Assembly: GCF_003730275.1 (NCBI RefSeq)
Contig: NZ_QTTA01000010.1
Location: 372,001-436,000, forward strand
DNA length: 64,000 nucleotides
Direction of reading: 5' to 3'
Origin: Brevundimonas halotolerans
Lineage (GTDB): Bacteria > Pseudomonadota > Alphaproteobacteria > Caulobacterales > Caulobacteraceae
The notes beneath the pieces are model-generated. The model ran no database searches. It saw only the letters and a program-made list of their open reading frames with translations, and had not been told where the DNA came from. How positions within the stretch are numbered: position 1 is the first letter of the stretch; every line of letters starts with the position of its first letter. The position numbers were made by a program, and so were the translations under genes. Shown here piece by piece: positions 6,334 to 10,773 of this stretch.

Positions 6334-7373
6334 GTGCGGACCTCCTCTCGCGCACCCTCGTGCTCGATGCGGTCGACGACCTCGAACAGGAAGGCGCGGG
6401 TCAGAAGCGCCCTCGCCTCCTCCGCCGACAGGCCGCGCTGCTGCATGTAGAACAGGGCGCTTTCGTCCAGATTACCGACCGTATTGCCGTGGGCGCACTG
6501 GACGTCGTCGGCATAGATGATCAGCTCGGGCTTGGCATCGACCTCACCCCGGTCTGAAAGGATCAGGGCGTGATGACCCATGCGGGCATCGGTGCCGTCG
6601 GCCCCGCGCTCGACCACGATCTTGCCCTGAAAGACGCCGCGCGCCGTGTCGCGCACCACGCCCTTGATCAGCTGCGAGGTCTGGCCGTCGGGCCCGGCGT
6701 GGGTGACGATGCTGGTCAGGTCGGCATGGCGATCCCCGGTCAGGGCATAGAGGCCGTCGGCACGAACGGTCGCGCCGTGACCGGGGTGGGTCACGTTCGT
6801 TTCGAAACGTTGGAGTTTCGCGCCCGTGGTCAGGATGGTTTGATTGAACTCCGAACCCTCGCTCAACGTCACATCAGCACGGGAAATAGAGATGGCTTCG
6901 GCGGTGTCATCGGCCAGAACGATCCGGTCAAGACGACCGCCTTCGAGGACAACGAAGTTGATCGCAGCGTTGGCGATATATGCGCCTGCCCGGCCCTCAT
7001 AGCTTTCAAGCAGCACGACATGATCATTTGGGCCGACTGTGTAGCCCAACGACGCCTGCCAACCACCAAAGGCGCTATCACTCACGAAGCGAATGGCATC
7101 TAGCAAGGGAGCATCAGGACGGACCGTCAGTCCCTTCCTGCCAAATCCCTTCAGTAAATTGTCGCCTTCATGGGTCCGACCGTTGCCAAAAGTCTGGTAT
7201 TCATTGGTGCAGAGCGCCCGGAACGGCCCGCCGTCGACCTCCACATCGATACGCTCCGCCGCAGCAGGCACCTCCCGAAGGTATCGGCGTACATCAGTGT
7301 ACTTCCACTGCTCGACCCGCCGTGACGGGAAGCTGGAGACGTCGTTCAGGTCGATCCGGGTAGCGAGGTTCAA
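6312..7373 (-). CDS. sufD: Fe-S assembly scaffold subunit SufD
   Basis: This 353-residue protein is the partner of SufB in the SufBC2D scaffold on which clusters are built. The C-terminal half carries the SufB/SufD beta-helix and the conserved end region CAHGNTVGNLDE, YMQQRGL and EARALLTRAF. The last of these is shared with SufB in this operon. The N-terminal half is variable, as in the family. It overlaps sufC by 4 bases (ATGA) and sufS by 22. Codon use changes along the gene: the first half (about 6830-7373) has many A/T-ending codons unlike the neighbours. Recombination with another lineage is one explanation. Confidence 0.93.
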   Translation of the reverse strand: MNLATRIDLNDVSSFPSRRVEQWKYTDVRRYLREVPAAAERIDVEVDGGPFRALCTNEYQTFGNGRTHEGDNLLKGFGRKGLTVRPDAPLLDAIRFVSDSAFGGWQASLGYTVGPNDHVVLLESYEGRAGAYIANAAINFVVLEGGRLDRIVLADDTAEAISISRADVTLSEGSEFNQTILTTGAKLQRFETNVTHPGHGATVRADGLYALTGDRHADLTSIVTHAGPDGQTSQLIKGVVRDTARGVFQGKIVVERGADGTDARMGHHALILSDRGEVDAKPELIIYADDVQCAHGNTVGNLDESALFYMQQRGLSAEEARALLTRAFLFEVVDRIEHEGAREEVRTWLMESS

Positions 7374-8119
7374 GCCGCCACCGGAAGGTATTTGTCATAC
7401 CCTTCCGCCTCGAGCTGGTGCGCCAGCTCCGGGCCGCCCGAGGCGACGATCTTGCCAGCGGCCAGCACATGCACCTTGTCCGGTTTGATGTAGTCCAGCA
7501 GGCGTTGATAGTGGGTGATGACCAGCATGGACCGCTCGGGTCCGCGCAGGGCGTTCACGCCGTCGGCGACGATCCGCAGGGCGTCGATGTCGAGGCCGGA
7601 GTCCGTCTCGTCGAGGATCAGCAGAGACGGCTCCAGCAGGGCCATCTGCAGGATCTCCATCCGCTTCTTCTCGCCGCCCGAGAAGCCGACATTCAGGGGC
7701 CGCTTCAGCATGTCGAAGTCCATCTTCAGGGCTTTCGACGCGGCCTTGACCTGCTTCAGGAACTCGGGCGCGGAGACCTCGGCCTCACCGCGCGCGCGCT
7801 TCTGGGCATTCAGCGCCGTGCGCACGAAAGTCAGGGCCGGAACGCCGGGGATCTCGATCGGATACTGGAACGACAGGAACACGCCCTTCGCCGCCCGCTC
7901 GGCCGGGTCGAGACCCAGCAGGTCCTCGCCGCGCCAGGTGACGGTGCCCTCGGTCGCCTCATAGCCGGGACGTCCCGAAACGGCATAGCCGAGCGTCGAC
8001 TTGCCCGCGCCATTGGGGCCCATGATGGCATGGACCTCGCCCGCCGGGACGTCGAGCGTCAGGCCCTTGAGGATGGGGGTGTCGGCGACAGAGACGTGGA
8101 AGTTGGAAATGGAGAGCAT
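7370..8119 (-). CDS. sufC: Fe-S assembly ATPase SufC
   Basis: This cytoplasmic ABC-type ATPase of 249 residues drives the SufBCD scaffold. Walker A is GPNGAGKST (34-42), the signature is FSGGEKK (146-152), and Walker B is LLILDE (166-171). A conserved FQYPIEIPG segment lies at 84-92. Its start follows directly after the toxin gene stop. A second, broken copy of its first 37 codons lies about 720 bases upstream (8682-8837). This intact copy therefore appears to be the functional one, separated from sufB by inserted genes. Confidence 0.96.
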   Translation of the reverse strand: MLSISNFHVSVADTPILKGLTLDVPAGEVHAIMGPNGAGKSTLGYAVSGRPGYEATEGTVTWRGEDLLGLDPAERAAKGVFLSFQYPIEIPGVPALTFVRTALNAQKRARGEAEVSAPEFLKQVKAASKALKMDFDMLKRPLNVGFSGGEKKRMEILQMALLEPSLLILDETDSGLDIDALRIVADGVNALRGPERSMLVITHYQRLLDYIKPDKVHVLAAGKIVASGGPELAHQLEAEGYDKYLPVAA

Positions 8120-8425
8120 TCAGTGGGACTCGGGTAAGGGGAAAACGCGGCCAAGGTCCTGACGGGCGTCGTAGAACGACACGATCACGACCTCATCCTG
8201 CAAAACCTGAAAAACGACGATCTTGTGCCAGCGTAGCAGGCTGGCCTCGCGCAAGCCTTTCCAGCGGGACGGACGATAGGAGAATGGATGTGCGCCGGTC
8301 CTGAGCGACAGGGCCTCGCTTTCCGAGAGGGCGCGATCGGTCAGGCGTGTGTCCTGGGCCTCCAGTCCATCCAGCCAGTCGCGTTGCGCGCTGCGAGCTT
8401 CCTGCGACCATCGCACGCGCCTCAT
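8120..8425 (-). CDS. Toxin of a type II toxin-antitoxin pair, RelE/ParE superfamily
   Basis: This is a small basic protein of 101 residues. The pattern fits RelE/ParE toxins: an N-terminal helix with RVRWSQEA, a central Arg-rich strand (YRPSRWKGLR) and a C-terminal strand pair with VVIVSFYDARQDLG. RelE members cut mRNA on the ribosome and ParE members poison gyrase; the sequence does not let me choose. It overlaps the antitoxin gene by 4 bases and ends immediately before the sufC start. It is unrelated to Fe-S assembly and is part of a cargo block inside the suf operon. Confidence 0.75.
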   Translation of the reverse strand: MRRVRWSQEARSAQRDWLDGLEAQDTRLTDRALSESEALSLRTGAHPFSYRPSRWKGLREASLLRWHKIVVFQVLQDEVVIVSFYDARQDLGRVFPLPESH

Positions 8426-8682
8426 CGCTTGTAGCGGGCCTTGAGCTCATCAAAGACCTCTGAATGATCATAGAGACGACCGGCCGCAACATCCTCCAGT
8501 CCACGCCTTATGGAAGCCGCCTGCTCTTCGGTCAGCGAGGCCCCGGCCTGCCCCTCATGGTCGGCGGCAACCTGCTCTGCCGCCGAGGCAATGAACTCTT
8601 CGAGCGACATGCCGATCTCGGCCGCCGCACGCTTCAGACGATCCGCAGCGTCAGCATCAAAGGGAATGGCTATGGTTTCCAT
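8422..8682 (-). CDS. Antitoxin of the adjacent RelE/ParE-type pair
   Basis: This 86-residue protein has the layout of a DNA-binding antitoxin. An N-terminal strand METIAIPFD is followed by two helices (ADRLKRAAAEIG, LEEFIASAAEQ), as in ribbon-helix-helix proteins. The C-terminal region ends with DHSEVFDELKARYKR, like the toxin-wrapping tail of RelB/ParD types. Its ATG overlaps the stop of the truncated sufC copy (TGATG), so ribosomes reading that fragment could re-initiate here. It overlaps the toxin gene by 4 bases. The pair is probably self-repressing, but it is also within the suf transcript. Confidence 0.72.
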   Translation of the reverse strand: METIAIPFDADAADRLKRAAAEIGMSLEEFIASAAEQVAADHEGQAGASLTEEQAASIRRGLEDVAAGRLYDHSEVFDELKARYKR

Positions 8683-8837
8683 CAGACAGTCCTCCGGTGA
8701 CGCAGCATCTTATCATAGTGGCCCCCACCCGTCGGACCCGTGACCACGTGCACCTCACCCGCCGGAACGTCGAGCGTCAGGCCCTTGAGAACGGGGGTGT
8801 CACCGACGGCGACGTGGAGGTTGGAGACGGAGAGCAT
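8682..8837 (-). pseudogene. Truncated duplicate of the sufC 5' end
   Basis: Codons 1-37 match the start of intact sufC closely, at about 87% of bases over the first 29 codons by eye. The encoded LKGLTLDVPAGEV is the same in both. The match dies within Walker A, where GPNGAGKST becomes GPTGGGH, followed by an unrelated tail of 14 codons and a stop that overlaps the antitoxin start. It sits 2 bases after the unknown 150-residue gene. It cannot make an ATPase. It is a scar of the event that placed the toxin-antitoxin pair next to sufC. Confidence 0.85.
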
Positions 8838-8839
8838 TG

Positions 8840-9292
8840 CTAAAGAGCCTTGGGATTTAAACCGATTGGAATTTCGTCATATCCCTCAATGTCAAGCCAA
8901 GCTCCTGCCGCCTCATTCAAGGCTGATCGAGCATTTACGGCATGAGGAAACCCGCGAGAAAGTTCGGTCCACATTTCGCGCGCTTTGGCTCTGAGTCTCA
9001 GCGAATTCCCGGCTCTCAACGTGTGGACCCAAACCATAAGACCCGAGGCCACTTGTGGAATGCCCTGCTTCTGAAGTCCGTGAACTACTTTCACGAGAGA
9101 GCTAACAGCGGTCGGATTCAGCGCATGAAAAACTAAGGGGTCCATCAAGTCGTAGCCTTGATCCTCCAACTCGTTCCGCCAACTAGCCGCCTGCGCGACC
9201 ACGAAGCCAAGCTCGTCAGCATCCACCGCCTTCAATCCATCGACGAAGGTTTGCATCTCCTTGAGCTGCACTCCCTCCCAGAAGTTCGCCAT
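8840..9292 (-). CDS. Hypothetical protein between sufB and the sufC fragment
   Basis: This 150-residue soluble, mainly helical protein has no signal peptide, cysteine cluster or recognisable motif. It opens with MANFWEGVQLKEM and carries aromatic and leucine-rich helices throughout. Codon use is visibly lower in GC than in sufB or sufC, with TTA, GTT, GTA and AGC codons, which suggests recent acquisition. It starts 14 bases after the sufB stop and is followed after 2 bases by the broken sufC copy. It may be an immunity or helper gene of the inserted block, but nothing in the sequence assigns a function. Confidence 0.6.
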   Translation of the reverse strand: MANFWEGVQLKEMQTFVDGLKAVDADELGFVVAQAASWRNELEDQGYDLMDPLVFHALNPTAVSSLVKVVHGLQKQGIPQVASGLMVWVHTLRAGNSLRLRAKAREMWTELSRGFPHAVNARSALNEAAGAWLDIEGYDEIPIGLNPKAL

Positions 9293-9306
9293 TAGACGCC
9301 CGAACA

Positions 9307-10772
<1,466 letters not shown>

Positions 10773-10773
<1 letters not shown>

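What the first reader, a model, noticed from the sequence alone, without database searches (positions are those of the whole stretch)
8120..9292. Cargo block with toxin-antitoxin pair inside the suf operon, flanked by a duplicated sufC start
Between sufB and sufC, which are normally adjacent, lie an unknown 150-residue gene, a broken copy of the first 37 codons of sufC, and a RelE/ParE-type toxin-antitoxin pair. The broken copy ends exactly inside Walker A, then joins foreign sequence leading to the antitoxin. The intact sufC then begins right after the toxin. The simplest reading is that a toxin-antitoxin cassette entered the sufC 5' end and a second sufC start restored the gene. The two starts differ at roughly one base in eight, so the event is old or the cassette carried its own sufC start from a relative. 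Reliable capture of an intact essential gene by a toxin pair would be a neat way to persist.
Basis: partly seen in the sequence, partly recalled or inferred. Interest (0 to 1): 0.75.

Follow-up and report, generated by a model that had tools for sequence, protein, structure and literature searches.

The report
Toxin pair in suf cargo slot
In Brevundimonas and its relatives, the gap between two genes of an iron-sulfur assembly operon is a swappable slot for small genes, and a toxin-antitoxin pair whose close relatives were found only there has repeatedly been added together with a fresh start of the next gene, leaving the old gene start behind as a stub.

Summary
Between sufB and sufC lie a 150-aa ORF, a sufC stub (codons 1-39, ending in Walker A), an antitoxin, a ParE-fold toxin and intact sufC.

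The wider picture is new. sufB|sufC is a cargo slot in this family: 90 of 125 Brevundimonas genomes carry 0.2-2.1 kb there, with 43 unrelated cargo clusters besides the toxin pair. The neighbouring iscS|sufB junction is always empty.

The 150-aa ORF is itself slot cargo: another genus has sufB-ORF-sufC with no stub or toxin pair. Every close relative of the toxin found sits in this slot, in two families.

Stubs recur in 10 genomes, with joints in sufC codons 28-46. One genome stacks two stub-toxin units. Another has three stubs, two fused in frame to the last 14 codons of a foreign sufB.

Best reading: two slot alleles are joined end to end. The left one is broken in its sufC start; the right one brings its cargo and an intact sufC. 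Stubs track toxin pairs (9/14 versus 1/76 genomes), which fits, but does not prove, that toxin pairs penalise replacement and favour addition. Growth-arrest activity is inferred from fold only.

The parts
9307..10773 (-). sufB, left wall of the cargo slot; its stop codon overlaps the start of the first cargo ORF (TAGTG)
8840..9307 (-). resident slot cargo, ORF of 155 codons (150 from the ATG at 9292), unknown function
   Evidence: no family; homologue, 45% aa identity, is the sole cargo between sufB and sufC in G237 of another genus
8721..8837 (-). sufC stub: codons 1-39 of an old sufC start, broken in Walker A
8683..8720 (-). leader between stub and antitoxin with a GGAG ribosome-binding-like site; the stub frame runs open through it to a TGATG stop/start overlap with the antitoxin
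8422..8682 (-). antitoxin, ribbon-helix-helix / RelB-ParD-like
   Evidence: weak matches; other members hit RHH_4
8120..8425 (-). toxin of the ParE/RelE superfamily, ParE type by fold
   Evidence: pLDDT 94; PaaA2-ParE2 and ParDE structures rank first
7370..8119 (-). intact sufC; ATG directly follows the toxin stop

Best explanation
The sufB|sufC junction is a cargo slot inside an operon needed for iron-sulfur cluster assembly. The window's version is two slot alleles joined end to end: sufB-ORF150-sufC on the left, broken inside its sufC start, and [leader]-antitoxin-toxin-sufC on the right. Joining kept one whole sufB and one whole sufC and left the left allele's sufC start as a stub. Likely molecular route (inferred): DNA of another strain pairs by ordinary homology in sufC or sufB, while the other joint forms at a few shared bases (homology-facilitated illegitimate recombination). 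Chains survive when translation runs on from gene to gene without a long untranslated gap. The pair then acts as a ParE-type toxin with a ribbon-helix-helix antitoxin (inferred from fold); losing it by allele replacement would be costly, so additive joints would be favoured over replacement (inferred).
For: (1) States on the left side exist: sufB-ORF150 homologue-sufC in another genus, and sufB-c9-sufC in G050/G105/G126/G127 against sufB-c9-stub-TA-sufC in G096, where the bases just before the stub ATG match those before sufC in those genomes. (2) States on the right side exist: sufB-TA-sufC without stub in G023, G112, G091, G102 and sufB-leader-TA-sufC in Caulobacter sp. D5. (3) Joined fossils: G130 has three stubs; in two, sufC codons 1-28 are fused in frame to the last 14 codons of sufB at a CGAGG micro-homology, those tails match other strains' sufB (44/45 bases) better than its own (40/45), and the cargos behind stubs 2 and 3 are of kinds that are sole cargo in other strains. 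(4) G114: two contigs overlap by 77 bp and read sufB-Y-stub-TA1-stub-TA2-sufC. (5) Joints fall at different sufC codons (28, about 33-34, about 37, 39, 39-46), so the event recurred. (6) The slot is specific: iscS-sufB distance is -1 to 4 nt in 86 genomes. (7) First-cargo starts overlap the sufB stop by 4 nt in 34 of 41 unrelated clusters (p=9e-11). (8) Stub-toxin association: 9 of 14 toxin-pair genomes against 1 of 76 others, Fisher p=3e-8 (not corrected for phylogeny).
Against: The donor of the window's own toxin pair is not identified, and G000's intact sufC also looks native (93% to G084), so which side was incoming is undecided. Toxin pairs sit with other cargo and no stub in G155 and in a Hyphomonadaceae genome, so addition does not need a stub. 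The stub peptide shows no amino-acid constraint, and its open frame is not unusual under neutral drift (joint P about 0.5), so coupling through the stub is plausible but unproven. The association test is not phylogenetically corrected. No toxin activity is shown.
Confidence: 0.66

Rival explanations
1. Local tandem duplication: the sufC 5' end was duplicated in place by slippage or unequal sister exchange, and the toxin pair was inserted between the copies afterwards.
For: Stub and intact copy in G000 both carry the clade-specific Thr14 codon (ACC) found in only 7 of the examined genomes.
Against: No genome shows a bare sufC-start duplication without cargo. In G130 the stubs are fused to foreign sufB ends with foreign cargo behind them, which local duplication cannot give. 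The stub is nearer to relatives' sufC than to its own intact copy.
Confidence: 0.1
2. The stub is a functional part of the cassette: a homology arm (or decoy sufC start) that lets stub-TA-sufC enter any sufC allele, or lets upstream cargo be exchanged, by ordinary RecA recombination without losing the toxin pair.
For: The codon-35 CCA variant occurs in the stubs of G078 and G121 and in the stub remnant of G045 but in 0 of 123 intact sufC genes, so the joint travels as a unit, while the upstream cargo differs in nearly every stub genome. G078 and G121 stubs are 95% identical although their toxins are 29% identical in amino acids. G114 shows the predicted stacking.
Against: Arms of about 105-120 bp are short. 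The G078 case could equally be replacement of the toxin pair behind a young joint. G096 and G066 share a stub-specific codon 3 (CAC) although their upstream cargo differs, so exchange would have had to occur almost at the ATG.
Confidence: 0.2
3. The toxin pair serves the host as a regulator tied to Fe-S supply: expressed from the IscR-controlled operon, it slows growth when suf expression and antitoxin supply fall out of balance; the stub is a by-product.
For: It is embedded and tightly spaced in the operon. In Caulobacter crescentus the gene between sufB and sufC is co-transcribed with suf, and the operon rises in low iron (PMC11475020).
Against: Present in only 14 of 125 genomes among many unrelated cargos that replace it, which is not what a conserved regulator looks like.
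Confidence: 0.1

Closest known systems
Type II toxin-antitoxin systems of the parDE / paaA-parE kind
   Same: Small antitoxin-toxin pair with 4-nt overlap; toxin profile hits E. coli ParE2 (5cw7, E=3e-8) and its fold matches PaaA2-ParE2 and ParDE structures.
   Different: Sits inside an essential operon, tightly spaced between two core genes; close relatives were found only at this position.
Homology-facilitated illegitimate recombination (known from natural transformation)
   Same: One joint by homology, the other at a few shared bases, adding foreign DNA without losing the target (my knowledge of the process; the term is in use).
   Different: Inferred from fossils only; repeated at one junction across a genus, with the target's own start left behind each time.
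Integration hotspots flanked by core genes
   Same: Unrelated cargo swaps between conserved neighbours.
   Different: Known hotspots usually lie between transcription units; here the slot is inside one operon, holds one to a few small genes and is fitted by stop/start overlaps.
Integrative elements that restore the end of the gene they enter (phages, integrative conjugative elements)
   Same: Carry a replacement piece of the target gene, leaving a truncated original.
   Different: No integrase, no att core, joints at several different codons, 5' end rather than the usual 3' end.
Hypothetical gene between sufB and sufC in Caulobacter crescentus and Rhodobacter
   Same: Both reported: a small ORF co-transcribed in C. 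crescentus (PMC11475020) and RSP_0439 (PMC6956336).
   Different: In the passages read, neither paper notes that the position is hypervariable or that gene-start stubs occur.

Membership tests
Type II TA, ParE/ParD kind | toxin with ParE/RelE fold | tested here: met
   AlphaFold model pLDDT 94; Foldseek best hits PaaA2-ParE2 (TM 0.80) and ParDE; Pfam ParE_toxin in 9 of 12 members, the window's own copy below cut-off at E=0.006
Type II TA, ParE/ParD kind | upstream DNA-binding antitoxin, overlapping or adjacent gene | tested here: met
   4-nt overlap; RHH_4 in 3 of 8 members, RelB/ParD-like C-terminus weak
Type II TA, ParE/ParD kind | toxin arrests growth (gyrase target for ParE) and antitoxin rescues | not testable with these tools
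   needs expression tests in a laboratory strain
Type II TA, ParE/ParD kind | own autoregulated promoter | tested here: inconclusive
   no sigma-70-type promoter found in 8080-9330; TATG-type elements in the leaders of some members seen by eye only
Integrase- or transposase-borne mobile element | recombinase gene in or beside the insert | tested here: not met
   only cargo, stub, antitoxin and toxin lie between sufB and sufC
Integrase- or transposase-borne mobile element | fixed insertion site / target-site repeat of fixed length | tested here: not met
   joints at sufC codons 28, about 33-34, about 37, 39, 39-46
Homology-facilitated illegitimate recombination product | micro-homology at the illegitimate joint | tested here: inconclusive
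   CGAGG shared by sufC and sufB at two G130 joints; donors of the other joints are not known exactly
Homology-facilitated illegitimate recombination product | homologous anchor on the other side | tested here: inconclusive
   sufC and downstream genes are shared by all alleles, but the exact crossover was not mapped

The most novel reading that the evidence does not exclude
A recombinase-free mobile cassette: a toxin pair flanked by two copies of an essential gene's start spreads through a species group by ordinary homologous recombination at that gene, adds itself behind any resident cargo, stacks, and resists loss by addiction; nucleases of the GIY-YIG kind resident in the same slot in other strains may supply the cuts.
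Probability: 0.2. Interest if true: 0.85.

Novelty: new variant of a known kind. Interest (0 to 1): 0.7.

Why it matters
It shows a hypervariable cargo slot inside an operon for iron-sulfur assembly, a place where insertions should be punished, and a readable fossil record (gene-start stubs, in-frame fusions of sufC starts to foreign sufB ends) of how genes get added to operons without breaking them. It gives a natural test of whether a toxin-antitoxin pair can hold a chromosomal position by punishing allele replacement: stubs occur in 9 of 14 slots with the pair and in 1 of 76 without it. It also gives a set of small uncharacterised genes that share one position and expression context.

Tried and rejected
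Stub as a functional peptide: rejected as a claim; synonymous/non-synonymous changes are near neutral and the open frame is not unusual. Stub from another ABC ATPase: rejected. Cassette borne on plasmids or viruses: no hit in plasmids or viral contigs. Stub 5' halves fresher than 3' halves as proof of renewal: only a slight trend. A foreign lineage for the G027 stub: differences too small. sigma-70 promoter or terminator in the block: none. PADLOC defence families: none. Structure of the 150-aa ORF: model too poor to use (pLDDT 51). sufB/sufC site changes in strains whose cargo is a GIY-YIG nuclease: nominal p about 0.002 near the sufB end, not significant after correction over the sites tested.

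Full report
What is there. On the - strand, between sufB (10773-9307) and sufC (8119-7370), lie a 150-aa ORF, a stub of sufC, an antitoxin and a toxin. The stub matches the sufC start over 118 bp at 81% identity, scores best against SufC models, and stops after Gly39 in Walker A. The gene starts and stops are fitted: sufB stop/ORF start TAGTG, stub stop/antitoxin start TGATG, antitoxin/toxin 4-nt overlap, toxin stop directly before the sufC ATG. The divergence is about one base in five, not one in eight.

The slot. I took the sufB-sufC interval from 125 Brevundimonas genomes. In 34 the genes are 9-21 bp apart, in one 88 bp, and in 90 the interval is 220-2085 bp. Apart from the toxin pair and stubs it holds 95 ORFs in 43 unrelated clusters, among them GIY-YIG nucleases, a 2-oxoglutarate Fe(II) oxygenase and a DUF1330 protein, and ORFs that read by eye as lipoproteins and membrane proteins. 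In 34 of 41 unrelated clusters the first cargo begins exactly on the sufB stop, where chance by frame is one third. The iscS-sufB junction is never interrupted in 86 genomes, and sufC-sufD is within 4 nt in 21 of 28. 14 of 20 genomes spread over other Caulobacteraceae genera also have 134-805 bp there, and other Alphaproteobacteria vary from -1 to 797. Published work notes a single small co-transcribed ORF there in C. crescentus (PMC11475020) and RSP_0439 in Rhodobacter (PMC6956336); I found no description of the position as hypervariable.

The 150-aa ORF is slot cargo. Its only good relative in a sample of 149 family genomes (45% identity) lies in another genus as the sole gene between sufB and sufC, starting on the sufB stop and ending on the sufC start. 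That is the state expected before the toxin pair came in.

The toxin pair belongs to the slot. In the genus, the window's toxin finds relatives in 14 genomes, all in the slot, plus one weak hit. A scan of 85,462 species genomes with a motif from the toxin profile gave seven loci: five Brevundimonas already known from the slot, Caulobacter sp. D5 and a Hyphomonadaceae genome, all between sufB and sufC. More distant ParE-like hits elsewhere exist. Plasmids and viral contigs gave none. The toxin folds as ParE (pLDDT 94, best hits PaaA2-ParE2 and ParDE); the antitoxins are ribbon-helix-helix-like with weak scores. Activity is not shown.

Stubs recur. Besides the window, stubs occur in G005, G027, G066, G078, G096, G109, G114, G121 (all with the toxin pair) and G130 (three stubs, other cargo). 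G114 reads sufB-Y-stub-TA1-stub-TA2-sufC across two contigs that overlap by 77 bp. In G130 two stubs are sufC codons 1-28 fused in frame to the last 14 codons of sufB; those tails match other strains' sufB ends (44/45) better than its own (40/45), and the cargo after stub 2 is 80% identical in DNA to the sole cargo of G116. These are slot alleles joined end to end. G096 has the same cargo and the same bases before the stub ATG as G050, G105, G126 and G127 have before sufC, so there the stub is where sufC used to begin. Joints lie at different codons between 28 and 46, so the event happened several times.

What travels together. The stub codon CCA for Pro35 is seen in G078, G121 and a stub remnant in G045 but in none of 123 intact genes: that joint is shared by descent, while upstream cargos differ. 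G078 and G121 stubs are 95% identical although their toxins share 29% of residues. Either stubs are renewed by recombination with sufC, or toxin pairs are exchanged behind the joint; I cannot separate these. A toxin tree places the Caulobacter sp. D5 copy among Brevundimonas copies, which suggests exchange between genera at the same locus, although several branches are long.

Mechanism and how sure. Shown: the slot, its specificity, the states expected before joining, the joined fossils, the recurrence, and the exclusive position of the close toxin relatives. Inferred: the route (one homologous joint, one short-homology joint), the need for continuous translation, and the idea that the toxin pair penalises replacement. 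The last rests on the association of stubs with toxin pairs (9/14 against 1/76, Fisher p=3e-8), not corrected for phylogeny, and on textbook behaviour of ParE toxins. For the window itself I cannot say which half was incoming: the stub resembles close relatives' sufC starts at 89.5% and its own at 81.9%, and the intact gene is 93% identical to G084 at its start.

Limits. Stub peptides look unconstrained. The genome-wide scan for similar stubs covered 456 kb only. The class-wide survey shows interval lengths, not cargo. G001 may hold a further duplication at a contig break but could not be resolved.

Noticed in passing
L006:2950-3288 (-), and slots of G001, G008, G030, G037, G046, G079, G103, G104: GIY-YIG nuclease cargo in the sufB-sufC slot (Pfam E=1e-10 for the G072 copy; the others group with it). 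G106 (L026:765-1502) has a T5orf172/MUG113 protein with a weak homing-endonuclease-associated repeat there. Possible source of cuts that drive exchange at the slot.
   Followed up: partly
G001 contigs C101 (end 34154) and C106 (end 37036): Both contigs end inside the sufC start, as expected if the start is duplicated around an unassembled insert.
   Followed up: no
G000 C1 252169-256496 (outside the window): In the pyruvate dehydrogenase operon small ORFs (127 aa and 99 aa) also sit between core genes with overlapping ends: pdhA-ORF-pdhB-ORF-pdhC; such slots may be more general.
   Followed up: no
sufC-sufD junction of G072, G034, G103, G003, G098, G117, G106: 144-193 nt between sufC and sufD in 7 of 28 genomes, against overlap in most others; content not examined.
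   Followed up: no
last about 12 nt of sufB in strains with GIY-YIG cargo: The sufB end differs from the usual sequence in 6 of 9 carriers (nominal p about 0.002, not corrected); could be a protected cleavage site or shared ancestry.
   Followed up: partly
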